Below, one piece after another: positions 1 to 19,813 of a stretch of 19,920 nucleotides of DNA. The notes below the pieces were generated by a model. That model saw only the letters and a list, made by a program, of their open reading frames with translations. It made no database searches and was not told where the DNA came from. Made by a program: the position numbers and the translations under genes. Positions within the stretch are counted from its first letter, which is position 1, and every line of letters begins with the position of its first letter. The stretch comes from Asparagopsis taxiformis (taxonomy: Eukaryota; Rhodophyta; Florideophyceae; Bonnemaisoniales; Bonnemaisoniaceae), in the NCBI GenBank assembly GCA_030407315.1, contig JALQPE010001944.1, forward strand, positions 1-19,920, written 5' to 3'.

Positions 1-458
1 AGTTCACTACTCATACAAAGTGCACGGAATACGAGTAACGTGATGGGTAGTAGTAGTGTTTGTCGTGGAGGAGTAAGGCAGGACCATGATGGAACAGGGG
101 AAACGATGTCACCCTAGCATAACTTAGGCTTGAAGCCTGGAATCGACCCATCGTTAGGCGCATTTAGCCTTACAGTTAGTGCTTACAGAAGCCAGTGATG
201 ACCCCGCTCGGGCGGCCCTGGTTCCGGTGCCTGGGGCCGTTGTGGCCAAATTAGACACCCTGATTTGAATTAAATTTGGGGCTATCTCAAAAACATGCAC
301 ATGTGAACATGTTTTTGAGATGGGGGTGTGCCGTACGGCACAATCGACCGCCCAAATCGATGTTTTTTGCATATTTTTTTTGTGCCCGAAATTGTAGAAT
401 TTCTGGGCGGCCAGAATGCATCTGAGCTGGACATCCACCGGACGTCCATTTCAGGTGA
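1..458 (+). repeat. Dispersed repeat unit, copy A (contains R core)
   Basis: This stretch matches 5255-5707 closely. Shared blocks include the opening gttcactact, the block around gtgcacggaat, the gcataacttaggcttgaagc segment, the cagttagtgcttacagaagc segment and the gggccgttgtggccaaatta segment, followed by the R core. No gene is seen in it; the short open frames on both strands are shared with every other repeat copy. Its left limit is not visible because the window starts inside or at the edge of the unit. It lies downstream of gene 1. Confidence 0.85.
259..455 (+). repeat. R core repeat, copy A
   Basis: About 197 bp, starting at cctgatttgaatt and ending at ggacgtccatttcag. It holds a hairpin with 12-bp arms (ctcaaaaacatg at 286-297 and catgtttttgag at 308-319) and, 8 bp on, the perfect 14-bp palindrome gtgccgtacggcac at 328-341. 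The same two structures recur in the five other R copies at 5007, 5508, 5896 (plus) and 9847, 11127 (minus). It may be a transposon terminus, a miniature element or a protein-binding site; the sequence does not decide. Confidence 0.85.
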
Positions 459-813
459 TCGTGTATCGTGCACGTCCAGCCATACCGAAGCAAGTAGTTT
501 GCGATGAAGCACGTATAAACCCAATTGTTCTGCTATTTCTAGCATAGACCATCGAGTCTAGAGATGTGAGGGAATCGTCCTGGAATCATGCTCCAACCCA
601 CTAGGAATGGACAATCTAGTTGGAAAGCATGGAACGGAAGTGCATTATAGTAGGTTCATAGATTGAAAGTGATAAAGGAGATGATTATATTCTCGATAAT
701 TGTTTGTCTAAAGTAGTTGTTGTAAGTAGTCTAGCCGTCGGAAAACTGTTCTTCCTCTTCGTCCTCACTATGATAGTGAAACTAGATATCAGGTTGTCCC
801 GGCAGAAGAGGCA
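459..813. other. Intergenic, 3' side of gene 1
   Basis: No supported gene. The first 50 bases may still be degraded repeat tail, comparable with the spacers after R at 5206-5254 and 6094-6145. The rest is unique sequence and should include the 3' untranslated region of gene 1. I do not see a convincing minus-strand AATAAA. Confidence 0.5.
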
Positions 814-3800
814 CTACCGGGGCCCATCGGTGATTGGCATACGCTTGCGAGGTTCTGTCGTCTTCATCCGCATCATTCGGAGCTGCCCTGTCTTCGGCCT
901 ACCATCTTTCTTGACCGGGATGGGAACAACTGTCTTGTGGCGAACATTGACAGGTGCCGGTTGACTTTGCCTTGCAGACCGGCGCGGAGCATTGGCGATG
1001 ACTTCTTCTTCGAATCCCAACCGCCTGATGAAACCAAACGAAACATTGTCGGGAATCGGATACGACGCATTCCTGAAATACGTGTGATACCTCGTTGTCG
1101 TGTGTGACACAACTCTGTCGACATGCCCTGCCCCGGCATGTTGTACATGGCCGTGACCGATGAAGACTGAACGTGGCGGAACGATTACCTTCTTCAGCTT
1201 CATCGTCTTGGCGTACATATCTAATTCCAGCGCTTTGGAAAAGACGTACTTGTGGGACCCTGGACACACCCAGATAGGGAATGGGTCATCTCCGTTGGCA
1301 ATAACAAAGTAACCCGGAAGTTGATCTTTGCGGTCGCGAGGAGGAACAGGGAAATCATTGTGTGGGACCTGCCGAGGACACCCCTTTCCCGTTATCAAAA
1401 ACCGTCCCCCAGATGCCGGCATGACAAGTTTTTCTCCCGGTAAACCGCACTCCTCCAGCCCTATCAGCCGGACAAGGATTCCCAACCACACATCCAGTAG
1501 GGCTCGCCGCGTCACAAACTTGAACCGGTCGATATGCGTCTCGTCGTTCTCGGCATAGTCAACCAGGCAGTGGCGTGTAGACGTGAAGCGAGCCCTCCCC
1601 TCATTCCGGTTCTTCTCATCTGTTTCATCGTCCCCTGTATTGACAATGGGACTCCACAGCTGCCGGTTCCCAGGGTCCTTGTGCACCTGCTCCCCCTCCC
1701 ATGTTCCCAAAAGTACCGAAACAATTCCTGGTTAGGAATTTCTTCCATGAGACCCAAGTCAAAGGGGAACTTGTCCGACGCATCGAGGTAGCTTACATCC
1801 GCGAAATTGTGCATCACCGTATACCCTCGCTCGTTGATTTCCGTTCGGCAATTGTGGAAGTACGCCATACCAGTGCCGGCCTCATACGAATCCTTCCAGC
1901 TTGTAGACATTCGCGCAACCTGGGCGAAGTCCAGCCTCGAGGGTAGAAACGTCGATGTAGGCTCACACATCGCCTTGGCAGCCATCTTCCACGCTGCGAA
2001 GAACATCGGATAGACGTGATCGATTTCGAATAGCACACGAGCCCGATGTTCTTCCGGAATATGCAGCCCCTCAAACACAGGGTCCATCGCCACTTGCTTC
2101 AAATACCTCACCTCTCTGCCCTCCTCATCGATTTCCACACTCTCCAATAACAACCTGAGCTCAATCGGGGGCAGACAGCCAACCCTCACCGATGCGATGA
2201 CATCCGCGGGACGCTGCGCCAGATGATGCCCTTCGGCTCGGTCTTCGAAATCGTCAGGAAGAGACGGCATACGGTCGTCGAAGAGGAGGTCGTCTTCAGA
2301 AGGAGAGTCACGAACGATGTAACCGTCTTCATCGACTTCCACTCCTTCCGGAACAGTGAATGTAATTGTCACTTCGCGGACCCCCTTGCTTTCGACTTGG
2401 CCCTCGTCTGCACCCTGTTTGTCTTCCTCGTCCGAAGCGGTATGGACAGATTCTTGGTTGGAGGGAGTCGCACCAGCACGTTGGTTATCTTGGGGGACAA
2501 TCTCAACGGCAGAATCGGGGGAACGGGCGGAGTCTTCGTCAACCTCATCACCGGAAGCAGTGGCTTGTTGTTGATCGGTGGGTTTATCAACAACGGCCTG
2601 CTCTTCTTCCCCGGCGGATTGTTGTACCACAACCGGCTCTTCTTCCTCGAGGCGTGTGCTCCCCGTCGAGCGAAGTCGCTGTGAACGGCGGCGGATGCCA
2701 TGCGAAGCAGGCTCATGTTCGACATTCCGCTGCTTCTTGTGAGTGAGTCTCACATTGGCAGCAGAAGGGCGGCGTTTGCGTCGAGCCTTAGTCTTCTTCT
2801 TCAATGTCGGATTGAAAAACTCTTTCAAGTTCGTTTCCAAATCCTGTAAACGCGTGGTTCTCCGTCGCATTCGAACCTCACTGCTCCGGTCGTCCCCTCT
2901 ATACATTGCAATGGCATTGGTGAGATGCCATTGCAACTCCTTCGGCTGCTTAACCGACCCAATTGCCATCTCTGTGCTCAGAAATGACTTGCGCATAATA
3001 CTCTTTGGGCGCCCAAACGCAGCGTACAGAGAATTTGCTATTGCAGTCACGCGACGGACGTATGTATAAAAGTCGTTCACGTCAAAGCGTCCATCCGGAC
3101 GTCCGCCATGAGCAGGGTTCAAGTACTCCGAAAGACCACGCAAGACGAAGACAAAGTTTTCTTCCAGCAACTCGCGCACTATCTTGTGGTCCAGGTGCGT
3201 TATCCCAATCTCGTTGCGGCGCTCGGAATTGTTCAGCTCACGCAACACGTCGTCGAGAACAGGATGCTTCAGCGTTGCTATAGCCAAACGCGTCCACCGC
3301 CGAGCCGTGTTCGTCGAATTCATCATCCCCATGAACTGCGCCTCGAACAATGTTCGGATGACATCAGACTCACGCAAGTCGCCAGCGTTTTCCACGTTGT
3401 TTGCAACAGCAATCGTACGGATGAACTGCTGGATGGACGACAAGATTCGAACCAGGGAGCGCTCCGTCAGTTGCGTCCCAGTCGTATGGTTCGACTCTGC
3501 ACTCTTGTGGATGATCTCATGAGGCTGGAGATCACTGTCGTCCTTGCGGCGAAGGTAGTACACATCCAGAGGCTGAGTAACCCAGCGCAAGCGGTTTGCC
3601 TCCTGTGGCAGCTTGGTTCTGTGCATACGGGTGAGGCGCGTGAAGTCATCCGCAATGCTATGCATAGCATTGAGACGATGCAGTCCGTCGATCACGGTCA
3701 CGTTCGCATTGGCATGGAATTTGCCATTCTGGAACAGACGCGTGTCGGCGGACAAATGCGTGTTCTGCGACCTCAGCACCGTCACAGTGATACGCGAAGA

Positions 3801-4658
3801 GCTCACATACCCCACCGCCAACATATTGTTGCGCAGGTCCTCCACGTGGTCTTCTTTGACATCGCGAAGGGTCACGGCCGGTTCCACTAGCTGCCTCACC
3901 AACACAGTCGCTCCTTCTCCGACGTAATCCGACGTCACAAACTTGGGCACCATAATTTGCGTCCCCTGCTGCTCACGAATGCTTTCCGCCACCTCCGGTT
4001 CGTCGTCCACCTCGGTTACGTCCTGCGTAGTAGCTTCGGTGACGTTGGAGCGAGCAGGGTGCTTCGTGCCTCCACTGGAGGCTCTGGCAGAGCGAGCAGG
4101 GCGCTTCGTGCCTCCCGAAACCGGGACGGAGCGTGCTGGATGCTTCGTACCCCCCGAACCAGTGATTTCGCCTGCTGGACCGGTACTGGGCATCCGTCCC
4201 GAGCTGGCCTGGTTCGTCGCTGCGTTGAAGTTTGACGCTGCAGCAGGGGTACGAATGTCGCTAGAGCCATCCTCCGCAGCGGGGCGCATCATCCGAGTAT
4301 CCCAAGGGTAAAACGCCGCGGCGTATGCTCCACCCATCGTCTCCGGCGGTCCCTCGGCGCCATCAAACATGTACGGGAACGGGAGGTCCTTGAACTTGTC
4401 CTTAGTCGCAATGTTGCGCACGACGATATAGTCGGCCTCGTCGGTTTCCGGCAGCTTGTGGTTGTGCAGCGTGCGCGGAAGGCCAACATCGCCACCAGCA
4501 GTGCTCACCGAAGCCGTCCCAATATGCACAGCCGCACCGTCCACGTCCGCAAACAAGTCGACATCGACGCCGCGCTTGAGTCCGCGCGACTCCGCTGACG
4601 CGCTCACTTGATCGCCGCAAACCGTTGAAAACAAACTGCTGAAATGCGTATCCGCCAT
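814..4658 (-). CDS. Gene 1: ParB-like / 2OG-Fe(II) dioxygenase protein, one frameshift
   Basis: The start at 4658 is preferred over in-frame codons further upstream because its context is aaccATGG. The first frame runs about 988 residues. A ParB/sulfiredoxin-like domain (about 255-400) carries the signature VIDGLHRLNA at 322-331. A basic stretch at 618-633 (KKKKTKARRKRR type) is a likely nuclear signal, followed by an acidic, disordered stretch to about 800. From about 870 a dioxygenase-like region begins (ERGYTVMHNF), and the frame breaks near 1692-1710. The second frame, ending at 814, has the rest: HND (H at 1360-1362, D at 1354-1356) as the HxD iron ligands, a WVCPGSHK segment as in phytanoyl-CoA-dioxygenase-like folds, a distal HAGAG histidine near 1138-1140 and an arginine near 1090-1092 for 2-oxoglutarate. 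A basic tail with an AT-hook-like DGRPK follows. The ParB domain probably binds DNA or nucleotide; oxidation of a DNA base is an inference, and a protein or small-molecule substrate is possible. Confidence 0.85.
1690..1710 (-). other. Frameshift site in gene 1 at a five-G run
   Basis: On the minus strand the sequence is catgggagggggagcagg; the five-G run is at 1692-1696. Before it the first frame reads sensible protein (NQELFRYFWEH); after it that frame turns into an R/T/S-rich tail that stops at 1512, while the minus-one frame continues with the dioxygenase. The shift is minus one, equal to one missing G. An assembly or sequencing error, a true mutation and ribosomal slippage are all possible. 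The exact base cannot be fixed from one copy. Confidence 0.75.
4047..4157 (-). repeat. Three in-frame peptide repeats in gene 1
   Basis: Residues 168-177, 181-190 and 195-204 of gene 1 read SGGTKHPARS, SGGTKRPARS and SGGTKHPARS. They are short basic repeats in a low-complexity linker before the ParB-like domain. They could contact DNA, but nothing shows this directly. Confidence 0.8.
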
Positions 4659-4941
4659 GGTTGTTGAGTTGGAAAGGAAAAGAGATGGTTGACGTTGACG
4701 TATTCGAGTGATGTGGATGGTATGTTTCACGTTAAGTTGAAGAATGGTCGTGAACGCCAATCGCTGGAAATAATAACACAATACAACCGAAATTTTGTTA
4801 GGTACACACCTATCGTGACCGCTGGAATGCAAGACAGGCAATCGAGATGTGAGTGTCCGTTCAGAACGGGCCCGAGTCGGGCTCTCGAAACCTGACGAGG
4901 TGGCGTGAAGCAGGCAGTGTCCTTGATGTGTAATGTGTTAA
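4659..4941 (-). promoter_or_regulatory. 5' flank of gene 1
   Basis: Unique sequence between the gene 1 start and the extended repeat copy B. It must hold the gene 1 leader and core promoter unless the promoter lies in the repeat. I see no strong TATA box. The gene 1 frame stays open upstream to 4841 without an in-frame stop, but the peptide there is unlike the rest. Confidence 0.35.
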
Positions 4942-5254
4942 AATTACAGCTGTCAAGCTAGGCGGCTTTTGGGGCGGCTGCGAGCACCCCTTTATCCGGG
5001 GAACACCCTGATTTGAGTTAAAATTTGGGCTATTCTCAAAAACATGCACATGTGAACATGTTTTTGAGATGGGGGTGTGCCGTACGGCACAATCGACCCG
5101 CCCAAATCGTTGATTTTTGCAAGATTTTTTGTGCCCGAAATTTTAGAATTTCTGGGCTGGCCAGCAGTGCATCTGAGATGGACATCCACCGGACGTCCAT
5201 TTCAGGTTGGTCGTGTGCTGCCTACATCCACGCATTGCAGCAACTAAGCAGGCG
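4942..5254 (+). repeat. Extended R repeat, copy B, upstream of gene 1
   Basis: R core at 5007-5205, preceded by an extra block from aattacagctgtc (4942-4954) through gcgagcacccctt to the R edge. The same block in inverted orientation sits beside R copy F at 11294-11343, upstream of gene 3. The block includes the palindrome acagctgt. After the R core comes a spacer (5206-5254) that recurs after copy D and leads into the next tandem unit. Confidence 0.8.
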
Positions 5255-6170
5255 GGTTCACTACTAATATAAAGTGCACGGAATATGAGTAACGTGATGG
5301 GTGAGTAGTGTTTCTGTTGAGGGAGTAAGGCGGGACCATGATGAAACACGGAAGAAGATTTCTCCCTAGCATAACTTAGGCTTGAAGCCTGCAATCGGCC
5401 CATCTTCCGGCGCCATTTAGCCTCACAGTTAGTGCTTACAGAAGCCAGTGATGACCCCGCTCGGGGCGGCGGCCGGTTCCTGGGGCCGTTGTGGCCAAAT
5501 TAGACACCCTGATTTGAATTAAAATTTGGGCTATTCTCAAAAACATGCACATGTGAACATGTTTTTGAAATGGGGGTGTGCCGTACGGCACAAACGACCC
5601 GCTGAAATCGTTGATTTTTTACAATTTTTTTGTGCCCGAAATTTTAGAATTTCCGGGCTGGCCAGCAGTGCAATCGAGCTGGACATCCACCGGACGTGCA
5701 TTTCAGGTTGGTCGTGAGAGAGTGGGGTGGGACCATGATGGAACAAGGACCAAGACCTGTCCCTGGCGTATTGAGCCTGAAATTGACCCTTTGTCAGACG
5801 CCATTTAGCCTTACAGTTAGTGCTTACAGAAGCCAGTGACAACCCCACTCGGGGCGGCGGTCGGTTCCTGGGGCCGTTGTGGCCAAATTAGACACCCTGA
5901 TTTGAATTAAAATTTGGGCTATTCTCAAAAACATGCACATGTGAACATGTTTTTGAGATGGGGGTGTGCCGTACGGCACAATCGACCCGCTGAAATCGAT
6001 GTTTTTTGCAATATTTTTTCTGCCCTGAATTGTAGAATTTCTGGGCTGGACAGCAATGCAACTGAGCTGGACATCCACCGGGCGTCCATTTCAACTTGGT
6101 CTTGTATTTTGCATCTGCACGCATAACAGCAACCAAGCAGTCAGGTTCACTGCTCGGACGAAGTGCACCT
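5255..6170 (+). repeat. Tandem repeat units with R copies C and D
   Basis: One nearly full unit (5255-5707, R core 5508-5707) is followed by a unit lacking its first part (about 5717-6145, R core 5896-6093). The start of another (ggttcact followed by aagtgcac) begins near 6144 and is lost by 6170. R starts are 501 bp and 388 bp apart, so the second unit is about 110 bp shorter. Copy D carries ggacatcc with gggcgtcc in place of ggacgtcc; copy C has ggacgtgc. No gene is seen. The remainder to 6321 is the unique 3' flank of gene 2. Confidence 0.85.
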
Positions 6171-6321
6171 AGAGTGTGAACGATTGGTTTTTGACAGGCG
6201 AGTACTGCCGAATAGGTTTCACCCTGGACTAATGGTGGCTGGACATTCTGCATTATATGATATACTTCAACTCTGGAACGTAGCTTTATTTGTAGTCGAA
6301 ATGAAAACATCTTTCGTGACC

Positions 6322-9300
6322 CTAATTCCATGCTCTAAACGCTGTCCCATAATGAACGTAGAGCTCCTGCCCCGGACGGATATCGCGGATTGCACGTACT
6401 ACAATGATCTTCGGATTTTCTAGGTCCTTCGCCTTGAGCTTCTTCCCCGTCGAACCGCTGCTGTAGTTCTCGACAAACTCGACGTTGGCCATCCGCCTGG
6501 TGTCTTCCGCCGGAGTGTCCTCACCTCGCAAATACCGCGGGTCGTTGATGAACTGCGCCGAACAGAACGGAGCCGGAACAATCCAAATTGGATGCTCGAT
6601 GTTTTCGTCGTCCTCCGCTGTTGCATACAGCTTGATAGCATACATCAAGAATGTTTCCTTCGTTATCGCCATGTGACCCTCTCCGTACGCGAACCTCATC
6701 GACTCCTTGCTCATATCAGAGTACACAACAGTTCCGTAGTATGCACATACTTCGTCACCAACATTAAATGTCTGTTCAGCGAAGAGCCCTCTTCCTGCAT
6801 TTGGATGCTTAATCAGCGATGGTCGAACGCTCAATTTTTTCGCAACACAATCGTGTGCCCGCATCACGCGAGGGTTTTCAGTTTGCAACCAGCGGCGCAG
6901 GGAAGGTGGCCAATAATGTACCGGTTTCTCCATGTGCTCGCGCGACGCAATCGACTCTGGGCACAGCTGCCAGAGGTACTGCCGAATATATTTCGGGAAC
7001 CTCTGGTACAGGGGAAGGCCAGGTGGGGGTTCGATGATCCTGCGTTCCCTCTGCGTACGCATCGTGACAGAGGGGGACGCCAAGAACTTCTCAGCACTCT
7101 GTTTCGCTTCTGTCGTGACCCTCATGTCAGTGTTGTTTGAAAGAATTACACGTGACATGACTGCACACAGCTTTGGAAGCGATCGTACCACACACAATTT
7201 GTCCATGTCACTGCCGACGAAAACACGGTGCTCAGGCAAGCTCATAGCTGCTTTTCCCGTTGCGAAAGTGCCAGAGAATGGATCGACAACAATATCACCA
7301 GGCTGTGAATGCTGGCTGATCAACTCCATCATGAGAGCGACGCTCTTCTGCTCTGCACGAACTCTGACCGTAGCACCGGTTGTGCTCCTTGTTCGCCACA
7401 CCATCTCATTCGAATCGATGGCGGGCATATTGATGGTGACGTTGCACCACGCCGGGTACGTGCCGTCCATGTATCCGTGGTTCCTATAGGCCACCATCTC
7501 GCTTCCGGTCTTGAACGGAACACCTCGCTTCCAGAAGTGGATAGCGACCTCTGCCATGTTCATGCGTTGGTACCTCTTCCGCCCCGGCATTTGATAGAGG
7601 TGCCCAGGTAGTCGGACAAACAACAGAGGTACCTCGTCAACGAAGAAAACTGAATTCCGAACGACGTCCTCCTCCTCCTCGTCCTCCTCCTCATCCGCAC
7701 TTTCTTCGCCACTGTGCTGCGATGCTTCGGAGTCCGAATTCATGGACGTAACCTCTTCTTCATCCGACCCGTCATCACTGGCAGCAGTATCGGTTGGGCC
7801 TTCTGACTGCGGTCCTTTGTACGTTTCCAAGTAATGGAACCATTCGTAGAACTGCAAAACCGAGCAGAACACGATGCCGTGGCCACCGGGGCGCAACAGC
7901 TCGTCAAACACTTCGATGCTAGCCTGCATATCTTCTGCAGTTAGCCTGTCGTACGAAGAGTTGGAATCGTTCCTCTTACGACGAACATTGTAGGGCGGAT
8001 CAGTCAGAATGAGCTGAACGTTGCCCGTGATGGGCACGTGTTCTCGGCTCTCGTCGGCACTGACCAAATCTTCGAAAGGGACGTCGTACACCCGGCAATA
8101 CTGACTCATTTTCGAAAGAAAGTCCTTTGCGAGAGCCTGCCCTTCACTTTCCTGCTCTTCTGTCGCATGGGGTGACGGTGACGGGGGAGACGGCCCTTGG
8201 GCAGTAAGACTGGTCCTCCCAGGTCCAAGTTGAAGCCTGGTTGTGTGTCTTGTCGACGGAACCAAACCTCTCCCTCCTGTGTTGCGACGAGTGGGAGTGT
8301 CATCAACCGGCTTGGGGACCTTTTCTGCGTCCGCGGCTTGTGGTGCCGGGCGGAGGACAGCCATAACGTCTTCGTCGAGGGTGTCAAAATACGCTGGCAG
8401 CTTGTCCGGATTTCCGCTTGAGAAGTATATTTCCAGTGCCCCCCAGCGGTCGGACTCCGGCCAGGTGTACAGGTCCGGGTTGACGATAAGAAACTGCAAC
8501 CGGTCGAAGAACTTCCTCACAAGGTCCCTAAATGCACTGTGCTGCGCACTGGTTCTTGTCTCTACTTTTCCACCATATCCATCAGGATGAGATAGGGGAG
8601 CTTTGTTGTGGTAGAGATCTAGCTTCTGCTCCATCGGTGCGAATAGACCTTCATCGAGCACGTCAAACCAATGCTCACTGCTGTCGAAAATGATGTACGG
8701 CGCCATCAACTCTTCGAAGCTGGAAAACTTTGCGGCGTAGGCCACATCGGTCCAAGCATGGTATAAAACTTGAACCACGTAACAAGCTCGATTAGTGCTT
8801 TTCCGATGGGCTGGGACGCGTGCGGCTTCGTTCCCCTCTTCGGCCGCATCTCCTATTCGGCGACGCGGCAGGTTCTTGTTGTGATTTCGGATGATAGACA
8901 ACGCTTGGAAATACATCAATACCTCGAACGTTTCCGGTGGAGCAAGAACGAAGGCGCTTGGTTCCCCGCGCTGCGGCGCCTGTAGTGGCGAAGGAAGCAT
9001 GTTACATCCAATAAGGAAGGTCTGCGGCACGATCCCAGAAAGGATGCAGTGCTCAACCCATTGCCCGATACGCTCATCCTGTCTTGAAAACTCGGCAATG
9101 GGTAATGCCAGACGAACAATCTGCTTGGCTCGCTCAACGTTCATCTCTGCCATGACGATTTCGGCAACATCCGCCTCGACTCCAGCATTCTTCGAACGAC
9201 CGCTGAAGGACATGCTGAGTCGACCTTGCAGCGCCACAAATTGTTCTTCCGTGCCCTGCGCAACCCAAGCGCCAAGGTCCGCGTATGTGAAACCTCCCGG

Positions 9301-9519
9301 CTTGTCCGTCAAGTCTGCGAAACTTGAGTGGGCGAATAAATCCAGCAAGAGGCGGAGGAAGTCTTTGCCAGCGAGAGTAGTTTCGCGGGCGGCGCGACCT
9401 ACGTTTCGACGTGTACCCATGTCACTAGAATCCTCCCAAGGGCTAGCGGGTTCGCGCAGAATTGGCACGGTTGCGTCGTCAACGATCGGATTGCTGTTGC
9501 GCCTGCGCTTATTCGTCAT
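6322..9519 (-). CDS. Gene 2: beta-class DNA methyltransferase fused to SET domain
   Basis: A protein of 1065 residues from the ATG at 9519 (context ATTATG); the frame is open further upstream but that peptide looks non-coding. Residues 1-400 are helical and unrecognised, with a basic start (NKRRR). Motif IV, TDPPYN, is at 506-511 (DPPY codons at 7990-8001), then RPGGHGIVFCS at 543-553. An acidic insert spans about 580-620. SAM-binding motif I, VDPFSGTFATG, is at 745-755. The order IV then I marks the beta class; DPPY fits N6-adenine or N4-cytosine methylation, with adenine the likelier. A SET domain follows at about 899-1062: GRGLFA near 909-914, FINDPR with NVEF in place of the classical NHxxxPN element, and a final GQELYVHYGTAFRAW. 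The two halves could methylate DNA and a histone (or other protein) at the same locus. No frameshift is seen and the motifs are intact. Confidence 0.92.
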   Translation of the reverse strand: MTNKRRRNSNPIVDDATVPILREPASPWEDSSDMGTRRNVGRAARETTLAGKDFLRLLLDLFAHSSFADLTDKPGGFTYADLGAWVAQGTEEQFVALQGRLSMSFSGRSKNAGVEADVAEIVMAEMNVERAKQIVRLALPIAEFSRQDERIGQWVEHCILSGIVPQTFLIGCNMLPSPLQAPQRGEPSAFVLAPPETFEVLMYFQALSIIRNHNKNLPRRRIGDAAEEGNEAARVPAHRKSTNRACYVVQVLYHAWTDVAYAAKFSSFEELMAPYIIFDSSEHWFDVLDEGLFAPMEQKLDLYHNKAPLSHPDGYGGKVETRTSAQHSAFRDLVRKFFDRLQFLIVNPDLYTWPESDRWGALEIYFSSGNPDKLPAYFDTLDEDVMAVLRPAPQAADAEKVPKPVDDTPTRRNTGGRGLVPSTRHTTRLQLGPGRTSLTAQGPSPPSPSPHATEEQESEGQALAKDFLSKMSQYCRVYDVPFEDLVSADESREHVPITGNVQLILTDPPYNVRRKRNDSNSSYDRLTAEDMQASIEVFDELLRPGGHGIVFCSVLQFYEWFHYLETYKGPQSEGPTDTAASDDGSDEEEVTSMNSDSEASQHSGEESADEEEDEEEEDVVRNSVFFVDEVPLLFVRLPGHLYQMPGRKRYQRMNMAEVAIHFWKRGVPFKTGSEMVAYRNHGYMDGTYPAWCNVTINMPAIDSNEMVWRTRSTTGATVRVRAEQKSVALMMELISQHSQPGDIVVDPFSGTFATGKAAMSLPEHRVFVGSDMDKLCVVRSLPKLCAVMSRVILSNNTDMRVTTEAKQSAEKFLASPSVTMRTQRERRIIEPPPGLPLYQRFPKYIRQYLWQLCPESIASREHMEKPVHYWPPSLRRWLQTENPRVMRAHDCVAKKLSVRPSLIKHPNAGRGLFAEQTFNVGDEVCAYYGTVVYSDMSKESMRFAYGEGHMAITKETFLMYAIKLYATAEDDENIEHPIWIVPAPFCSAQFINDPRYLRGEDTPAEDTRRMANVEFVENYSSGSTGKKLKAKDLENPKIIVVRAIRDIRPGQELYVHYGTAFRAWN

Positions 9520-9846
9520 AATGGAATGAGTGGAAAATTCGGTACAGGATGGCGACCGCTCGGCGAGACAGTCAAATTTGACGACGTATCTCGTGACGTT
9601 TGCACTCTTTCGTGAGGAACACTGGTTGATATCGAACGGAACAGAGTATACGGGTACACAGCACTGGAAAGGTCTTGAAACCCGTAACCGGTGTAGGTAA
9701 TAAGTTGTGACGGATACGTGGTAGAGAAAAAATTTTAAAAAGATTGTGATTCCCTGCCTTTGAGTGTTGTACTGCAAGGCCGCCAGTCACATAGGTTGAC
9801 ACAGGTGCCTCACGCTTACCAGGTGAGCGACATCCGGACGGCCACT
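9520..9846 (-). promoter_or_regulatory. 5' flank of gene 2
   Basis: Unique sequence between the gene 2 start and R copy E. An A/T-rich patch at about 9725-9745 (aaaaaattttaaaaa) could serve as a TATA-like element for the minus strand. There is no competing gene. Confidence 0.35.
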
Positions 9847-10033
9847 GGACGTGGGGATGTCCGACTCAGATGCATTGCTGGCCAGCCCAGAAATTCTACA
9901 ATTTCGGGCAGAAAAAATATTGCAAAAAACATCGATTTCGGCGGTCGATTGTGCCGTACGGCACACCCCCATCTCAAAAACATGTTCACATGTGCATGTT
10001 TTTGAGAATAGCCCAAATTTTAATTCAAAGCAG
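9847..10033 (-). repeat. R core repeat, copy E (inverted)
   Basis: The reverse complement of the R core, with hairpin arms and the gtgccgtacggcac palindrome intact. With copy D at 5896-6093 it forms an inverted pair around gene 2, the cctgatttgaatt-type ends facing outward. Its inner end differs: ggacatcc is followed by ccacgtcc rather than accggacgtcc. Confidence 0.85.
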
Positions 10034-10299
10034 GATGCAGATATTCGTCTTCTACCATTGTCAGAACACATTCGTATAACCACATTTGGAGAACCTGAGC
10101 CCAGAGCTATCGGTTTTGGCGGGAGCTAAGCCATATCTCATATAATCAGTAACTACTTCCCGCCAGCTGAGTGGTGGAACCCCTGCTATTTCTACCAACG
10201 AGACATACGGGGTGTCAACTCGGCAATCGTATATGATTTGGGTGCTAAATTTATTCAAGAGACGAATGGGCTTCGAAAAGGAGCCCAACTACGTCTACT
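10034..10299. other. Unique spacer
   Basis: No gene, RNA or repeat recognised between R copy E and the glycine-rich minisatellite. Confidence 0.4.
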
Positions 10300-10657
10300 T
10301 GTGATCCATGGGTATAGGACTATTCTATTCTTCTCCAGGCTTCCACCGTAGCCGCCTCCTCCGCCTCCGTTAATGGAAAGAATATCCGAACCGCACCTCA
10401 ACATGTTCTTCATGTGATCCATGGGTACTGACATCTCACATGCTCTCCAGGCTTCCACCGTAGCCGCCTCCTCCGCCTCCGTTAATGGCAACAATATCCA
10501 AACTGGACCTCTACATGTTTTTCTTGTGATCCATGGGTACTGACATCTCACATGTTCTCCAGGCTTCCTCCAAAGCCGCCACCTCCACCTCCGTTAATGG
10601 AAAGAATACCCGAACCGCAGGCTTCCTCCATAGCCGCCTCCACCTCCGTTAATGGCA
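10300..10657 (-). repeat. Minisatellite with degenerate glycine-rich coding units
   Basis: Four imperfect units; the first three start at 10300, 10412 and 10525 (periods 112 and 113 bp) and the fourth is cut short. Each holds a segment that on the minus strand reads NGGGGGGYGGS or close to it. Differences between units in that segment are mostly at third codon positions (GGC/GGT, GGA/GGT, TAC/TAT), with one Y-to-F change. The period is not a multiple of three, so the array is not one open frame. It may be duplicated exons of a glycine-rich protein gene, or its relic. Confidence 0.7.
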
Positions 10658-11126
10658 AAAACATCTCACCGGGCTGAAAACGGACGGACGACATTGGGTT
10701 CGTTCCGCTGCGTAGACGTTTAGAATCTTGTTAGAAAAAAGTAAACGAAAGAGAATGACATCTCATCTCTGTCGCAATATGTTCCATTTTCAAGTTCTCG
10801 GGTTCCACACCCATCAAGGCCTGGATCGAACCCTCTTCGATGGATAGGACAAATAGTGGAAGGCTTTTAAGCCTGTGACCAAGCGGCTATTGATTGGTTG
10901 GAGGAAGGAAATTACAGAGGAAATTTAGCTGAGTACGGTGCTCGCGATAGCTGTTAGGTTAAAGTCAAATATGTGTTTCGATTATTTTTCGTACGAAAAT
11001 GTCTTGCAAAAGACGATGCTTTGTCGTTCTCCTGGAGGGAGTCCGTTGCATTGCACTCAATTCGAGAGCATCGTCATGAAGGAGAGGATTCTTTCTGCTT
11101 GTTAGAATCGGTTTAGAGCACATAGC
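10658..11126. other. Unique spacer
   Basis: About 470 bases with no gene, RNA gene or clear repeat that I can support. It is moderately A/T-rich. Confidence 0.45.
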
Positions 11127-11343
11127 TAATGCATTACTGGCCAGCCCAGAAATTGTAGAATTTCGGGCAGCAAAAATATTGTAAAAAACCTTGATTTGGG
11201 CGGCCGATTGTGCCGTACGGCACACCCCCATTTCAAAAACATGTTCACATGTGCATGTTTTTGAGAATAGCCCAAATTTTAATTCAAATCAGGACGTCTT
11301 CCGGACATAGGGGTGCTCGCGGCCTAGCTCGACAGCTGTAATT
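11127..11343 (-). repeat. Extended R repeat, copy F (inverted), upstream of gene 3
   Basis: R core at 11127-11293 in reverse orientation, shortened at its inner end, followed by the extra block that ends gacagctgtaatt (11331-11343). That block matches the one at 4942-5006 beside copy B with an internal gap of about 18 bases. Copies B and F are in the same orientation relative to genes 1 and 3, so they may be shared promoter elements as well as inverted ends. Confidence 0.8.
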
Positions 11344-11526
11344 GTACCTCATTAAATACTGTTGATGACTGCCTACCGTATACAATCTGGGCTGTTGGCG
11401 TATTATCCGGTACTTGACCTGACCTGAACGTTCATCGCAGACCGTTGTGGTTACCGACACTATACAGCAATCTTTTTTGTATCTCGTGCAACTCAATCGT
11501 TCCATCGCTTCCGGGAAAGCTTCATT

Positions 11527-13811
11527 ATGCCGCCGCGTATTGCGAAGAAAGCTCCAAAGCCTCCGGGCCTCCAGAAAACCCGGTCAGCAGCTGCTGTATC
11601 GAGTGCCCGACAATCCCGTGCGAAGAAGCGGTCTGGGCCTACCGGCAGCATTGAACCGCGGTCCGGTAGTCGCAAGACGGACCGGCGCAGAACTGGGGAT
11701 CCGCAGCGAGAAAGTGAGGAAGGAGGAACGGCGCGGAGAGAGATGGGGCTTGACCGAGGCAAGCGTGCTCGCAGGGACAGTGAACATCATGATGATGACA
11801 TGATAGTGGCTCAAAACATGTTGGAATTGCGGCAGAGTGCTATGGCAAAGGTAGTTCCTCCCGGGTTGGCAGATGCGGAGGTGCTGCAGACGGAGTCCCA
11901 GCCGGGGGTTCCGAGACACTGGAGGCTGTGACCCCCACTGCGCCAACTATGCCGAGTACATCAGCCCCAGCAGGTAATGCAGTCAGGGACCCGAGGATAG
12001 CGGCAAGGGATGTTGTTTCTGAGCAACGTTCACAGGATGCCAACTATCATCGGCGGTCAGGTGGTACTGAGGGGAGAGAGCAGCCGGAGTGCGGGCCTCG
12101 TCACAACAGAGTGTCATTGGTGCCAAATATGCGCGTAACGCCCCCGCGACGTCAGGCTATTGGCGATGGAGGACATCATATTCCCGATAGCGTGGGAGAT
12201 GGGGGGACGGTGAGGGCAGAGAGGTTGCATCCGCCGGAATCCATCGATTTAATGGCGAGTCGCATCAATGCGCAGAAGAAGAAGATCGCGGAGCTGGAAA
12301 AAAAAGTGTTTAGCCAGGACATAGCAAACAAGGCGCTCACCACGGAGATTGTTGCGTTGGAGGCTAAGGTGAAGACTCTGCAGGCGGAAAATGCCAGCCT
12401 TACTGCAATTGCGAGAACAGGTAGAATCAGTGATCACGGTGGCGGTAAGTCGAAAATACAGAAAGCCATTCCTGTGAAATACCTTGGAGTTCTTAGGGCG
12501 GTTGAGGAAAACCTGACAAAGTGGTGCAAGAACGAGACTATGGAGCTGGACCCTATAGCGGAACAAACGCAGAGACGTTGGACTGGACGTACCATCGAGG
12601 TAGAGCCGGTAGAAGGGGCACTTTGGAGCGAAAACGGTGTAGGATATATTGCTACCCCTCCGGGCTATATCATCAAGAATCTGCAGTGGTATACACCTTC
12701 GTACAGGGACGAGAGTGATCTGCTGAATGACTTGGTGCGACACGTACTGCGTCAAAGTCCGTGGTGTGATGTGTTTTCCGATGAGGAGCAGCGTGTGTGC
12801 TGTCAAGAGGCTGTGGCGGGGAGCAAGGAATTGAAAGTGAAGGTGACGCAGAAACTGTCCGACGTGATGAGTGCACGGAAGCGTAATGCGAGGGACAGAT
12901 TGTTCGGTTCGCTGGGGTACACGAAATTAATGTCTAGATGCACGATGCTGACGACGCGAGCTGAGATGGACGAGCGAGAGGAACAAAAGCGCGAAGCGTC
13001 TGAGAAGCTTTTGAAACGGGAAAGTAACGGTGATTTGGATATGGGGAGGTGGCGAACGGCACCGTTCTCAGAGCTGCGATACAGCAAAGGCTTGGTTCCT
13101 GACAGCTTCGAAATGGAAGTGAATGGTGATGCATGGTTTAACAACCGAGTAGCTGTGAATGTGCTGGACATCTTCAGGGGTTATTCGATACGACCAGAAC
13201 AAGTAATGGACATAGAGACGAGCATACTAACGCTGGCGCGCCTGGATGCTTGGCTAGTGACTACTGTGGAGTGTTTGGATGAACCGAAGGGGAAAGGAGG
13301 TGCACGGCAGAAGGAGTTTACAAGGCGGTACAGTCAATATGTGGGGGTAGCTTTTCAGCAATTAGTTGGTATGGTGGTGTACTGCATGTCTTGTCTCCAA
13401 GGCTCGCAAGCAAGGGAAGAAACGGACGTTGTCGAGAGCGAACAGCGGACTAGTGCACAGTCACGGCATGTGTTTGCAAGCCGTACTGTGACGAGAGAGG
13501 CTGTTGAAGTGTGGCAAAGCGGAGAGGGGTCTGGAATTGTTCATGTCGTTGATGATGTAAACCGCTGCTCATCACTTGTTCTAGTGTCCGAGGATTGGAT
13601 TCAATCGCATATTACGTCAAACCTCGGTGCTGTAATGGATTGTGTGATTGCGCAAGGACTAATTGGCGCAGAACTTTTCGTCGTTGACCCATATGCTGGA
13701 CACCTGACTGCAAACCTGAATGTCGAAATCAATGCCCCACAGTATGGGGGCATGGAGCGGCGCCATGCAGCCACTGCTGATAACGGTTTTGGCGTAATGG
13801 AGGATGGTTGA
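11527..13811 (+). CDS. Gene 3: basic coiled-coil protein of unknown function, one frameshift
   Basis: The ATG at 11527 has context ATTATG, like gene 2, and opens a basic, proline- and serine-rich region (MPPRIAKKAPKPPG). That frame ends at 11931. The main frame is open from 11799 to 13811, and its only start near the overlap is a GTG at 11928, so the two belong to one gene of about 760 residues joined by a minus-one shift near 11904-11908. In the main frame a coiled coil is clear (MASRINAQKKKIAELEKKVF onward, about 12252-12410). Beyond it lies a conserved-looking globular part with many W, C and charged residues (about 12450-13400). The protein is likely nuclear and self-associating. It could be an accessory DNA-binding protein of the element, but I recognise no catalytic motif or named domain. 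It converges on gene 4 with a 77-bp gap. Confidence 0.8.
11900..11915 (+). other. Frameshift site in gene 3 at a five-G run
   Basis: The sequence cagccgggggttccgag has five Gs at 11904-11908. The first frame runs VLQTESQPG before the run and stops 8 codons later; the minus-one frame continues GSETLEAV into the long frame. This equals one missing G, the same sense and the same sequence context as in gene 1. The shift must fall between 11799 and 11931; the G run is the most likely point. Confidence 0.65.
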
Positions 13812-13887
13812 AATTAGTGCAGTAAATGTGACGTTGACTAGAAGGTTTATCATGTAGTACATTATCAATAGAGTGCTGCGATTTAGA

Positions 13888-13893
13888 TTTATT
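13888..13893 (-). terminator. Poly(A) signal overlapping the gene 4 stop
   Basis: On the minus strand AATAAA spans the TAA stop of gene 4 (13889-13891). Cleavage some 15-25 bases on would put the 3' end of gene 4 inside the 77-bp gap and close to the stop of gene 3, so the two convergent transcripts may overlap. Confidence 0.5.
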
Positions 13894-16800
13894 CTTCTTC
13901 ATTATCATCTGTGAATTGGTAATCAGTGTTGGTGTAGAAGCGGTTGAGATAGAAACGGTGGTCCGACCAGTGCATTTGTTTCGTAAATGGCTTGACTGGA
14001 AAGTTACTTCGTACGATGTGCACGGTGCCAGATATAGTAGATGCAGGAATGAGGTCAAACCAAGGACCACCTGCACTGTGGGATGCAGTGTCATTGCTGT
14101 CAACGGATCCGTTGTCCGGGTCCCATGTGGACCACTTTAAACAAATGCACCCAAGTGATTTTTCCACAGCGGTTTTTGGGGCAAAGCAGGTCATATACTG
14201 AACGAAAGCGAGTTCTACAGGTTGAAACAGGTTTGGAGACTGCAGGCGTACCAGTGCCAGGACGCGCCCTACCCATATGGTTCTGTAGTCATCGGCAGTT
14301 CCGGAGATGACGACAAAGGAGTACTGCGATCTCTTTGCGGGGCCGAACGATGAAGTTGCAAAGACGCGCTGCTGCTTGTGCCTCGACACGTTTGTGGGGC
14401 GAAGCATGCCACTGTGCGGGTCAAAGTCGTCGGCATCTGGGACGTACCCTCCCATGACGTAGGCGGACTTTACCACGGTGACGGAAATGTCCATGTCATG
14501 TATTGGAGGGCCTTCTGCCGTGGCGCGCAGTCTAGCGAGGGTGAGGAACGCTTGTGCAGCTGTGTCACCGAGTTGCTGGAATAGCGTTATGGTGCCAGAC
14601 GGGAACGAGGAGTTGTGCAGCGGCAAAAGAGTGGCAGGATCGGGCTGTCCGTCGATATCTGCAACGAGGAGGGTTGCATCGGGCAGCAGGGAGGCAAAGT
14701 CGTGCAGTGCAACGGTGAATCCGTCGCGAACGAGTACTGCACCGTCTGTGGGCGATATCATGCGTGCGTTTCCCAATGTGTTCGATGGGGTATGACCAGT
14801 TGGAGTGGCCAAGGAGAATTCCATGTGGCGAATAGTCTCTTCCATGGCTGTGGAGCGCCTTCGAGAGGTTTTCCTATAACTCTGTTTGAACAGAAGATGC
14901 GAGTGTTCGTAGGGGCCTGCATCAATGTGTTCCAGGGCGCCATATCTCTGCAAGTCACCGGGAAGATGGTCTAGAAGATGGAACTTGAAAGTTTTGAGAC
15001 CTGTGGTGTGGAATGGGCCGAGGGTGGAGAGCATTGATTGTTTGAAATAGGAAATGGAGTTCTGGAGGCTTTCTAGTTCGGCGGCAGTCCAGTGCTTGAT
15101 GCGACCGCGTTTCATGACCCATGCGACGAGGTCAGAGTATTGCGTGCAGATGGAAGTGAGGGGGGCTGTATCTACTTCGTCACAGCATGTGTCAATGAAT
15201 GCTGCGATGAAAGGGAACACCATGTCGACATGGTGATAGTCTTTGGCTGCGAGCATGCCGCGTATGCCGTCCTCCGTGAAGAGGCCGTTCAAATTGGTGC
15301 CCTTCTCACCCTTGGAGAAGTCGACATGAAGACCGGTGATGTAGTAGTCGCGTTCGATAGCGGACAGAATGCTGTTTGAGCCGGCGAGGATGGATTTTTT
15401 CACCTTCTTGAAGGTGCGAGGTGTCCCGGAATGGGAGGCAGTGGTGGTGAGGTCTGGGGAGCTGAGGCGGTGGACAATGCACTGTTTGATGAGCTTTGAG
15501 ATGCCGAGGTGGAGATTGTGCAGAGGCTCGAAGGAGAAAATGTTGTAGGGGTCTAGGGGACTGTTGGTGGGTAAAAGAGCGGTCGATTCGAGGACAGAGT
15601 GTTGTTCGAGGAGGGAGAGAGCTTCGAGCGGAGCAGTTGTATGCTCCTGAGCGCTCTCTTGGCGTGCAGAGCGTGTATCATCGAGGGAGCGGGGCTGGTG
15701 TGGCGCGCTGGATTCAAGTTGAGTGGCGGGGATGTAGCAGCGGTGGCAGGGATGTGTGGTGGTAGTGCTGTTGCGAGTGCATGAGAGCTCTTTGGCCTCT
15801 GGAAAGTCGCAGCAATAATTGGCTAGGATGGGAAAGCATTGGCGGGCAGTTGCAGTGGAGTCTGTGCAGGGGAACCCGGAAGAGAACGCGGTGGATAGGG
15901 ACGAAAACACTTTTTCGAGTGCTTTATGAAGAATATCAATTTTGCGAGCGCGACTAGCAGAACTAGAGGTTGTCGGCATTTCATCACCGAACAAGGCGTT
16001 GGACGAAGGGTTAACAATGTACGGAAGATACCCGACGATGGTGAGGCCGGTACGGATGCAGTGGCGACGGAGGGGGGCGGAGAAGTTGAGCAGTGTGACG
16101 TGTATGGGGTATGCGACGATTGCGGAGCTCTTGAGGCTTGTGCTGCTCTTGTCGGAGTACACTTGGAGGAGGCCGGCAAAGGAGGAAGCGGTGGGATCAT
16201 TTTCCTCTGCCCATACGACCTGTGGATCTTCCGAGAGCTGCACGCGCTGTCTAGTAACCTGGTGCAGCGTTTTCGCGAATTCTGTGTGTAGGGGATGAGA
16301 AAATATTGCGGTGCCGTCTGGGGCGGTCTGTGGGGAGGGGTGGAAGAGAGTATTTTGGTCGTTAGCCAGTGCTAACTGCCTGCGGAGCATGTCGACTGGG
16401 TCGCGGAGGTACAGCTGTGCCGAGTACTTACCAGTTTTGTCTGGAATGATGTGGCTCTTGTAACCTTCGGTGCGGAAATGTGTTTCGACCATGGAAGCGG
16501 TAACGTGGCGACATTCTTCTACGGTGCGAACGGCGCTGTTGAACTTTTCTAGGGAGAATGCGGGGTCTTGTAGGATGGTGATGACTTCGCTCACGCGGCC
16601 AGCGCCGGCCTTGTACTCGAGGGTTGTGAGACTGGCGGCGAGGGATTGCACGAGGAGGTCTGCGCGGGAGGGGGTTGAGGTTGGTGGCAGTGAAGCGTCA
16701 CAGGGTGAGTCGCTGGAGGAAGCACGACCAGATTCTGGGTCTGGGGAGCTGGGTTGCGGGGAATCATGGTCGCCGTTTCGAGCAGGCTCATGGGTGACGG

Positions 16801-16927
16801 CAGGGACACGAGCGTTGTTGAAATGTTGGGGAGAGGGGTTGAAACGGTAGCGACACGTTCGCTCATGCAGCGCGAGCGCATAAGCATCTACGCAGTAGTA
16901 GAAGCACCCTTCATACTTGCATTCCAT
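13889..16927 (-). CDS. Gene 4: Plavaka/CMC-type DDE transposase
   Basis: An intact protein of 1012 residues. Residues 3-25 form a C2HC-type zinc finger (CKYEGC, then H21 and C25). A serine/proline linker reaches about 95. The catalytic core shows the Plavaka-like order: YSDKSST at 257-263 (candidate first D, 259), AYPIHVTLLNFSAPLR at 272-287, GYLPYIV at 299-305, ANYCCDFPEAKELS at 369-382 (candidate second D, 374) with a CHRC zinc pair at 394-397, SFEPLHNLHLGI at 465-476, and HLLDHLPGDLQRYGALEHID at 650-669 with YEHSH at 673-677 (candidate E, 674). The C-terminus (about 870-975) has VGRVLALVRL and ELAFVQYM as in the end domains of such proteins. It should cut and paste DNA bearing its terminal repeats. 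Family membership is from remembered motif pattern; the acid triad needs a structure model. No frame breaks are seen, so the gene may be active. Confidence 0.85.
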   Translation of the reverse strand: MECKYEGCFYYCVDAYALALHERTCRYRFNPSPQHFNNARVPAVTHEPARNGDHDSPQPSSPDPESGRASSSDSPCDASLPPTSTPSRADLLVQSLAASLTTLEYKAGAGRVSEVITILQDPAFSLEKFNSAVRTVEECRHVTASMVETHFRTEGYKSHIIPDKTGKYSAQLYLRDPVDMLRRQLALANDQNTLFHPSPQTAPDGTAIFSHPLHTEFAKTLHQVTRQRVQLSEDPQVVWAEENDPTASSFAGLLQVYSDKSSTSLKSSAIVAYPIHVTLLNFSAPLRRHCIRTGLTIVGYLPYIVNPSSNALFGDEMPTTSSSASRARKIDILHKALEKVFSSLSTAFSSGFPCTDSTATARQCFPILANYCCDFPEAKELSCTRNSTTTTHPCHRCYIPATQLESSAPHQPRSLDDTRSARQESAQEHTTAPLEALSLLEQHSVLESTALLPTNSPLDPYNIFSFEPLHNLHLGISKLIKQCIVHRLSSPDLTTTASHSGTPRTFKKVKKSILAGSNSILSAIERDYYITGLHVDFSKGEKGTNLNGLFTEDGIRGMLAAKDYHHVDMVFPFIAAFIDTCCDEVDTAPLTSICTQYSDLVAWVMKRGRIKHWTAAELESLQNSISYFKQSMLSTLGPFHTTGLKTFKFHLLDHLPGDLQRYGALEHIDAGPYEHSHLLFKQSYRKTSRRRSTAMEETIRHMEFSLATPTGHTPSNTLGNARMISPTDGAVLVRDGFTVALHDFASLLPDATLLVADIDGQPDPATLLPLHNSSFPSGTITLFQQLGDTAAQAFLTLARLRATAEGPPIHDMDISVTVVKSAYVMGGYVPDADDFDPHSGMLRPTNVSRHKQQRVFATSSFGPAKRSQYSFVVISGTADDYRTIWVGRVLALVRLQSPNLFQPVELAFVQYMTCFAPKTAVEKSLGCICLKWSTWDPDNGSVDSNDTASHSAGGPWFDLIPASTISGTVHIVRSNFPVKPFTKQMHWSDHRFYLNRFYTNTDYQFTDDNEEE

Positions 16928-19082: not shown

Positions 19083-19122
19083 AGAGAGACGTATTGTATA
19101 CGAGCAGTTTCCTAAATGAGAG

Positions 19123-19128: not shown

Positions 19129-19207
19129 ATACGGTCCGATATGGGCCCTGAATTTACCATCCGCTGTAATTTCTTCCCTCCCGGTTTTCGCTGATATATT
19201 GTATACT

Positions 19208-19765: not shown

Positions 19766-19813
19766 GGACGTCCGCATCCAAAAATTTTATTTTTTTTTGG
19801 ACGCGGACGTTCA
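19765..19813. repeat. Inverted repeat at the satellite edge
   Basis: The arms at 19765-19784 and 19794-19813 pair at 18 of 20 positions around an A/T-rich 9-base loop. The arm motif tggacgtccgcgtcca occurs exactly at 19862-19877. Between, an inverted scrap of the satellite (ctaggaccc at 19840-19848, then gtactagagaga) appears. The arrangement looks like abutting or nested transposon termini. Confidence 0.8.

What the first reader, a model, noticed from the sequence alone, without database searches (positions are those of the whole stretch)
814..16927. Transposon-linked DNA and chromatin modification cluster
Within 16 kb lie a ParB-like/2OG-Fe(II) dioxygenase, a DNA methyltransferase fused to a SET domain, a basic coiled-coil protein and a Plavaka/CMC-type transposase. 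R repeats border the first three genes and gene 3 abuts the transposase gene. Seen: the motifs and the repeats. Known: fungal KDZ-type transposons carry TET/JBP-type dioxygenases, so such cargo has precedent. Inferred: one element that marks its own DNA or nearby histones and may also remove or oxidise the mark.
Basis: partly seen in the sequence, partly recalled or inferred. Interest (0 to 1): 0.88.

Follow-up and report, generated by a model that had tools for sequence, protein, structure and literature searches.

The report
Giant transposon carrying epigenetic enzymes
A 22-23-kilobase jumping gene, present in about 900 closely similar copies in what is likely a red-seaweed genome, carries its own genes for enzymes predicted to write marks on DNA and histones and to oxidise a substrate that is likely such a mark, which would let a genomic parasite control its own silencing.

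Summary
The four genes are real and lie in one mobile element. Five complete copies are 22.0-23.4 kb with matching 34-bp inverted ends; the window lacks about the first 3.1 kb and ends at 19895. Exact probes hit 2,404 ends, 929 methyltransferase, 929 transposase and 837 dioxygenase sites, so genes 1 and 2 are cargo, not single host genes; gene 3 is in all five complete copies but was not counted genome-wide.

Gene 2 is a beta-class N6/N4 DNA methyltransferase fused to SET (pN/pS 0.16-0.32 between alleles). Gene 1 ends in a 2OG-Fe(II) dioxygenase (invariant H, H, R; matching fold); 'ParB' is motif only. R repeats share a 30-base hairpin core and a 12-bp palindrome in 16 of 16 copies examined, six of them from an 11-kb relative without cargo ORFs. 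Gene 2 lies between inverted R clusters and occurs in both orientations (of 97 sites: 56 inverted, 18 as here, 2 mixed, 21 unassigned).

The host is probably not a fungus: long open frames, no C5-DNA methyltransferase found, assembly size near that of the red seaweed Asparagopsis taxiformis. That the enzymes mark the element's own chromatin is inferred. New variant of a known kind.

The parts
19862..19895 (-). Right terminal inverted repeat, 34 bp; ends at the host junction (25 bp of flank follow in the window)
   Evidence: same end in 5 of 5 complete copies with different flanks; 2,404 exact TIR hits genome-wide, control 0
19207..19772 (.). Subterminal array of a 43-bp unit, 13.2 copies
   Evidence: Tandem Repeats Finder; also in other copies and in the 11-kb relative
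17598..18634 (.). Second repeat family (about 229-bp period) upstream of the transposase gene
13889..16927 (-). Plavaka-type transposase, 1,012 aa
   Evidence: PF18759 E 1.6e-24; 929 exact 40-mer probe hits; 0 variable codons of 1,013 in 6 copies
11527..13811 (+). Gene 3, coiled-coil protein; two overlapping frames here (11527-11931, 11928-13811), one 761-aa ORF in copy C503
6322..9519 (-). Gene 2, beta-class DNA methyltransferase fused to SET, 1,065 aa from ATG
   Evidence: 929 exact probe hits; 0 variable codons of 1,066 in 7 copies
7198..8019 (-). N6_N4_Mtase domain; DPPY first, DPFSGTFATG later (beta order)
   Evidence: PF01555 residues 587-860 of the 1,151-aa frame; DpnA alignment
6346..6795 (-). 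SET domain
   Evidence: PF00856 residues 995-1144; weak KMT5A and KMT2 matches
814..4658 (-). Gene 1, broken in this copy; 1,310-aa ORF in six other copies
1014..2081 (-). Approximate place of the 2OG-Fe(II) dioxygenase domain of gene 1 (aa 860-1215 of the intact copy, mapped without correcting for the frame breaks)
   Evidence: invariant Q, H, H, R in 8 aligned sequences; fold match
3666..3695 (-). Approximate place of the DGLHRLN motif read as ParB-like; motif only
   Evidence: position mapped; no profile support
52..460 (+). R repeat downstream of gene 1 (hairpin from 288, palindrome from 328)
4885..6096 (+). R cluster, three copies, between genes 1 and 2 (hairpins from 5037, 5538, 5926)
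9855..10037 (-). Inverted R copy upstream of gene 2
11129..11324 (-). Inverted R copy between genes 2 and 3

Best explanation
This is a Plavaka-type DNA transposon of 22-23 kb that carries a DNA-methyltransferase-SET fusion gene and a predicted 2OG-Fe(II) dioxygenase gene, and it likely uses these enzymes to write and revise marks on its own DNA and nearby histones, probably at its R repeats, so that the host does not keep it silent. Shown: the ends, the cargo shared across copies, the high similarity of copies, the domains by profile or predicted fold, the R palindromes, and gene 2 in both orientations with R at the junctions of two inverted copies. Inferred: the transposase moves the element by its 34-bp ends; the MTase methylates an amino group (6mA more likely than 4mC, from the DPPY motif, a recalled rule); the SET domain methylates a histone or another protein; the dioxygenase oxidises or removes a methyl mark; one of the element's proteins binds the R palindromes; recombination between inverted R clusters flips gene 2.
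Against: No methylation, histone or expression data. MTase motif I reads DPFSGTFATG, unlike DPFMGSGTTG of the DpnA match. The SET match is modest (29.5 bits against a cut-off of 22.4) and its NHS-type stretch is not canonical (motif recalled). Nothing ties any protein to R. The window copy has a broken gene 1, and gene 3 is split or broken in 4 of 5 complete copies, the window and C88. 7 of 29 testable transposase sites lack the MTase probe. The dioxygenase substrate is unknown and its model has mean pLDDT 58.8. The near-identity is partly ascertained: the copies read first were chosen among the best gene-1 hits; C88 and C192 differ from C436 by 0.9-2.0% in the long blocks.
Confidence: 0.5

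Rival explanations
1. Transposition control: the element's own adenine methylation likely tells the transposase which ends are newly replicated, as Dam methylation does for Tn10/IS10 (recalled), so that jumps after replication raise copy number; SET and dioxygenase are accessory.
For: An amino-MTase gene and a DNA transposase gene in the same element and a large expansion of similar copies.
Against: Does not explain the SET domain or the dioxygenase; the conserved R palindromes lie between genes, kilobases from the ends.
Confidence: 0.18
2. Self-silencing: the element likely deposits repressive marks on itself, limiting damage to the host, and releases them through the dioxygenase when it moves.
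For: A DNA mark and a histone mark linked in one system resembles the 4mC-H3K9me3 loop proposed for bdelloid rotifers (PMC8885841, passages). A load of about 929 probe hits must be tolerated.
Against: Copies without a variable codon in gene 2 at seven places point to recent activity, which argues against tight self-restraint.
Confidence: 0.17
3. The cargo is a passenger without function for the element.
For: Gene 3 is split or broken in most copies read and the 11-kb elements spread without cargo ORFs.
Against: Intact gene 1, gene 2 and transposase ORFs in 5 of 5 complete copies; purifying-type ratios, though from 14-19 and 6 changes only; cargo probes about as frequent as transposase probes.
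Confidence: 0.12
4. It is an endogenous virus or a Polinton-like element rather than a Plavaka transposon.
For: Length, intron-poor genes and an amino-MTase; fold relatives of the dioxygenase occur in phages and giant viruses.
Against: The transposase is a Plavaka family match; the only other ATG ORFs of at least 200 aa in the complete copies are gene 1, gene 2, gene 3 and two frames antisense to genes 1 and 2.
Confidence: 0.03

Closest known systems
TET/JBP-carrying Plavaka transposons of Agaricus bisporus and Gymnopus confluens (Kojima 2025, PMC12730594; abstract, sections 3.2 and 4.2 and passages seen)
   Same: Plavaka transposase plus an oxygenase cargo proposed to act against silencing; 2- or 3-bp target duplications
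   Different: Here the dioxygenase has no Tet_JBP match; there is also a DNA MTase-SET fusion; ends are CGTCTGTG..CACAGACG, neither TGT..ACA nor CATCA..TGATG
Plavaka giant repeats of Amoebidium (PMC11244446; passages seen)
   Same: Long multi-gene units with a Plavaka transposase, intron-poor genes
   Different: Those carry many tyrosine recombinase genes and are 5mC-methylated; no MTase-SET cargo is described in the passages seen
Retrotransposons encoding C5-cytosine DNA methyltransferases in dinoflagellates and charophytes (de Mendoza 2018, PMC5890265; abstract and outline seen)
   Same: A mobile element that encodes its own DNA methyltransferase, proposed to self-methylate
   Different: Retrotransposons and 5mC; here a DNA transposon and a bacterial-type amino-MTase fused to SET
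N4CMT of bdelloid rotifers (PMC8885841; abstract and passages seen)
   Same: Bacterial beta-class amino-MTase fused to a chromatin domain
   Different: Host gene with a histone-reading chromodomain, not a transposon gene with a SET domain
HarbingerS and MuDR transposons with SET genes in Phytophthora (cited in PMC12730594, passage; originals not seen)
   Same: DNA transposons carrying a SET methyltransferase gene
   Different: No DNA-MTase fusion or dioxygenase is mentioned in that passage
DpnA, CcrM and YhdJ-type beta-class amino-MTases
   Same: Motif order and C-terminal motif block
   Different: Large N-terminal region and SET fusion; diverged motif I

Membership tests
Plavaka DNA transposons | Plavaka transposase domain | tested here: met
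   PF18759 E 1.6e-24, 87.2 bits against cut-off 26.3
Plavaka DNA transposons | 2- or 3-bp target site duplication (PMC12730594) | tested here: inconclusive
   2-bp match in 7 of 14 end pairs, chance probability 8.6e-6 at 1/16 per pair; 7 pairs do not match
Plavaka DNA transposons | Termini of PlavakaA (TGT..ACA) or PlavakaB (CATCA..TGATG) as in PMC12730594 | tested here: not met
   CGTCTGTG..CACAGACG: outside both described terminal classes, so it is filed as Plavaka-type by its transposase, not as a member of PlavakaA or PlavakaB
TET/JBP dioxygenases | Tet_JBP sequence profile | tested here: not met
   No Tet_JBP match for gene 1 or its slices or for any of 8 aligned members; the genome-wide search is uninformative because no control rang
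TET/JBP dioxygenases | TET/JBP fold variant | tested here: inconclusive
   The listed fold matches are other 2OG-Fe(II) enzymes such as KanJ, SnoK and PHYHD1; absence from the list excludes nothing
2OG-Fe(II) dioxygenases | Double-stranded beta-helix with HxD/E..H and a distal Arg (motif recalled) | tested here: met
Beta-class N6A/N4C DNA methyltransferases | DPPY before the SAM-binding motif, plus matching profile | tested here: met
   PF01555 4.1e-15; DpnA 4.2e-8
Beta-class N6A/N4C DNA methyltransferases | Catalytic activity on DNA | not testable with these tools
   needs protein
SET lysine methyltransferases | SET profile over its full length | tested here: met
   PF00856 positions 1-105 of 105, 29.5 bits against cut-off 22.4
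SET lysine methyltransferases | Histone methyltransferase activity | not testable with these tools
   needs protein
ParB/Srx-like proteins | ParB_N profile | tested here: not met
   No ParB match for gene 1 slices at E <= 10 (one unrelated weak match, E 0.13); genome-wide one place, C1526, not the element, while 10 of 14 controls rang

The most novel reading that the evidence does not exclude
A DNA transposon with a complete, portable epigenetic system of its own: a single protein writes an amino-methyl mark on the element's DNA and a methyl mark on the surrounding nucleosomes, R palindromes are the addresses, a dioxygenase edits the mark, and R-R recombination flips the writer gene as a switch between states; a host without 5mC was then overrun by about 900 copies.
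Probability: 0.15. Interest if true: 0.93.

Novelty: new variant of a known kind. Interest (0 to 1): 0.78.

Why it matters
Transposons with one epigenetic enzyme are known (papers under Closest known systems). An element that combines a DNA-MTase-SET fusion, an oxygenase and conserved palindromic repeats would be a natural system for joint DNA and histone marking, and it is a large share of this genome (about 21 Mb if each of 929 probe hits is a full copy, an estimate). A review passage says that DNA transposition drops markedly above 6 kb of cargo (PMC6431247), so about 900 copies of a 23-kb DNA transposon are themselves unusual. If the host lacks 5mC, one can ask directly whether a parasite supplied a new DNA mark. 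If the host is Asparagopsis taxiformis, a figure legend for its bromoform (mbb) gene cluster lists genes annotated as DNA methyltransferases (PMC12115072), which may be copies of this element.

Tried and rejected
ParB domain in gene 1: not supported. TET/JBP assignment: no profile match; the genome-wide Tet_JBP search is uninformative. Fungal host: disfavoured but not disproved; the 5.8S sequence could not be fetched. T-shaped outer stem of R: formed in the typed consensus but not in the copy at 5910-6000, so not claimed. Single-sequence structure of the dioxygenase: useless, pLDDT 29.6. TET/JBP structures do not appear among the 50 rows shown, which excludes nothing. Relatives in viral contigs: none for the gene 1 or gene 2 protein. 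Search with the full-length gene 1 protein: no hit among the 7,993 candidates scored; only the dioxygenase slice found relatives. No Rfam match and no tRNA in the window. PADLOC adds only generic methyltransferase models for gene 2. Whether this is in print was checked only in the held open-licence PMC library; Iyer et al. 2014 was not held.

Rows dropped or partial: 97 of 100 listed MTase hits and 95 of 100 listed dioxygenase hits were typed in; all 100 MTase and all 100 transposase rows. Both use only the first 100 listed of 929 (837 for the dioxygenase). The two copies with mixed orientation probably pair with neighbouring elements. The two ends fetched from C42 face away from each other and were left out of the 14 end pairs. 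The six copies were chosen from the 45 best gene-1 hits, which favours copies like the window. R copies were found by their hairpin with up to 3 or 5 mismatches, so its conservation is partly ascertained; when R flanks without the core were used instead, 47 of 49 flank matches had both core elements nearby, one had the hairpin alone and one neither (matches overlap, so they are not 49 separate copies).

Full report
WHAT THE WINDOW IS. The window is bases 1-19920 of contig C1820 of an unnamed 141.5-Mb assembly of 3,156 contigs. On its minus strand lie gene 1, gene 2 and a transposase gene; gene 3 is on the plus strand between gene 2 and the transposase gene. Pfam finds N6_N4_Mtase and SET in one protein (gene 2) and Plavaka in the transposase, and nothing in gene 1.

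ENDS AND COPIES. I fetched six copies from other contigs; five are complete and one (C749) runs off its contig. They were chosen among the 45 best gene-1 hits, so they favour copies like the window. The five complete ones start with CGTCTGTGTTCTCGGAAATGGACGCGGACGTCCA and end with the inverted, slightly different version; lengths are 21,960 to 23,385 bp. The window's right end is base 19895; its first base corresponds to about position 3,095 of copy C436, so about 3.1 kb of the left end is outside. Of 14 end pairs inspected, 7 have matching 2-bp flanks (C436 TA, C503 TA, C14 TG, C90 TT, C49 GA, C100 CA, C12a AA) and 7 do not (C1569, C1593, C1579, C11, C12b, C88, C67); the chance of 7 or more at 1/16 each is 8.6e-6. 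Mismatched pairs could come from recombination between copies, misassembly, or ends that belong to two elements.

COPY NUMBER. Exact pattern counts in the genome: ends 2,404, MTase 929, transposase 929, dioxygenase 837, R core 4,599; each reversed control gave 0. Gene 3 was not counted. The protein search for gene 1 (1,024 residues of it) scored 45 of 2,865 candidates, and all 45 were 100% identical to the query. Multiplying 929 by the mean length of the five copies gives about 21 Mb or 15% of the assembly; this is an estimate, because many hits are near contig ends. Of 100 listed transposase sites, 54 have an MTase probe on the expected side at 5-9 kb; among 29 plus-strand sites more than 9 kb from the contig start, 22 do and 7 do not. 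So most of these, but not all, carry the MTase gene; a probe can also be missed through one mismatch.

AGE AND SELECTION. In 7 copies (window included) gene 2 has no variable codon of 1,066, in 6 copies the transposase none of 1,013; two non-coding stretches of 1,501 and 2,200 columns have 0 and 2 variable sites. These are the copies chosen above; the inverted copies C88 and C192 differ from C436 by 0.9-2.0% in their long aligned blocks. Gene 1 in 6 copies has 14 synonymous and 3 non-synonymous variable codons, all between codons 911 and 1066, as a recombined allele would leave. Between forms, gene 2 shows pN/pS of 0.16-0.32 and the transposase 0.16; the numbers of changes are small (14-19 and 6).

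GENE 1. The intact copy is 1,310 aa. Its C-terminal slice (aa 860-1215) has one near-identical relative and six more at E 3.2e-59 to 1.1e-23. In the alignment of 8, H241, H315 and R331 are invariant, and the residue two after H241 is D in seven and E in one, the layout of 2OG-Fe(II) dioxygenases (motif recalled). The model built with this alignment (pLDDT 58.8, pTM 0.68) matches KanJ, SnoK, FtmOx1 and PHYHD1, which I recall as PhyH-type enzymes. The substrate cannot be read from this. The N-terminal ParB label rests on a DGLHRLN motif; profile tests fail.

GENE 2. The MTase has DPPY before DPFSGTFATG, the beta order, and aligns with DpnA, CcrM and YhdJ-type enzymes. The SET match covers the full profile. 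One homologous cluster was found in a 5.8-billion-protein collection, P0001 at 98% identity (only the 7,988 candidates sharing most words were scored).

R REPEATS. The five complete copies have 7-10 R cores, the partial copy C749 has 11 and the 11-kb relative 6. They lie left of (downstream of) gene 1, between genes 1 and 2, and between genes 2 and 3. In 16 copies (10 from C436, 6 from the 11-kb element) a 30-base hairpin core and the 12-bp palindrome TGCCGTACGGCA are exact in 16 of 16; the longer 36-base and 14-bp forms are exact in 14 and 13; flanks vary more. The copies were found by the hairpin itself with up to 5 mismatches; a search with R flanks only found both core elements near 47 of 49 flank matches. 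Three single strands fold with z -4.2 to -5.3. The palindromes look like protein-binding addresses; the binder is unknown.

NON-AUTONOMOUS RELATIVE. C12:264414-275483 is 11,070 bp with the same ends, the 43-bp array and R copies, but only one ORF of 150 aa or more (161 aa) in the 10 kb scanned. A probe of its middle has 323 hits with up to one mismatch. Keeping R while losing the genes fits a role of R in cis, but descent from a diverged full element could also leave R behind.

INVERSION OF GENE 2. In the window and the five complete copies gene 2 has the same strand as gene 1 and the transposase gene. Of 97 gene-2 sites typed, 56 are inverted relative to the neighbour probes, 18 are as in the window, 2 are mixed and 21 have no neighbour in range. 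In the inverted copies C88 and C192 both junctions fall in R. C192 carries the gene-2 residues of C436 at five positions where C88 shares those of P0001 (261, 305, 366, 780, 862); so orientation and allele are not strictly linked, which needs more than one inversion or recombination between forms. Inversion by R-R recombination is inferred. Whether it switches expression is unknown.

HOST. The eight best SET places, which I take for host genes, lie in open frames of 761-4,042 aa (SET seen again in six of them). No C5-DNA methyltransferase is found, though 10 of 14 control genomes ring; the controls are prokaryotes, and a eukaryotic gene in small exons could be missed, so this is weak. A Myb gene of a type that I recall from plants, algae and some protists lies next to one SET gene. 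The Asparagopsis taxiformis lineage 6 assembly is 142.472 Mb in 3,308 contigs with 33.48% DNA transposons and 64.32% single-exon genes (PMC12115072, passages). I infer a red seaweed, likely this one, perhaps after removal of contaminant contigs; this is not shown.

FUNCTION. The commitment is self-marking against silencing. What is shown ends at sequence: domains, conservation, copy number, repeats. Writing, editing, binding and their effect are inferred from families. Rivals are listed with probabilities. In the library held here the searches named under Tried and rejected found precedents for single parts (TET/JBP Plavaka, DNMT retrotransposons, SET in Harbinger and MuDR, rotifer N4CMT), and I saw no paper in those listings that describes this combination; the library lacks most subscription journals.

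Noticed in passing
window 10332-10619: Tandem 112-bp repeat (2.6 copies) between genes 2 and 3.
   Followed up: no
window 18747-19160; L036 637-1122: A 137-161-aa ORF over 24-bp repeats near the right end is present in both the window and the 11-kb element; coding status unclear.
   Followed up: partly
window 12001-19000: GC skew turns strongly positive (0.17 to 0.53) over the gene 3-transposase-right end half.
   Followed up: no
G000 C1526:7582-7839: The only ParB_N match reported for the genome, in a 290-aa frame; possibly a contaminant or organelle contig.
   Followed up: no
G000 C100:220069-230492: Two right-type ends face each other 10.4 kb apart around a transposase probe without an MTase probe: a rearranged copy.
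   Followed up: partly
left R array of other copies: R units vary in number: 7 to 11 R cores per copy in the six copies read.
   Followed up: partly
PMC12115072 figure legend: The schematic of the bromoform (mbb) gene cluster contig of A. taxiformis lists site-specific and adenine-specific DNA methyltransferase genes; these may be copies of this element.
   Followed up: no
P0004-P0009: Six diverged relatives of the dioxygenase (E 3.2e-59 to 1.1e-23) from unnamed sources, one with HxE instead of HxD; their gene context is unknown.
   Followed up: partly
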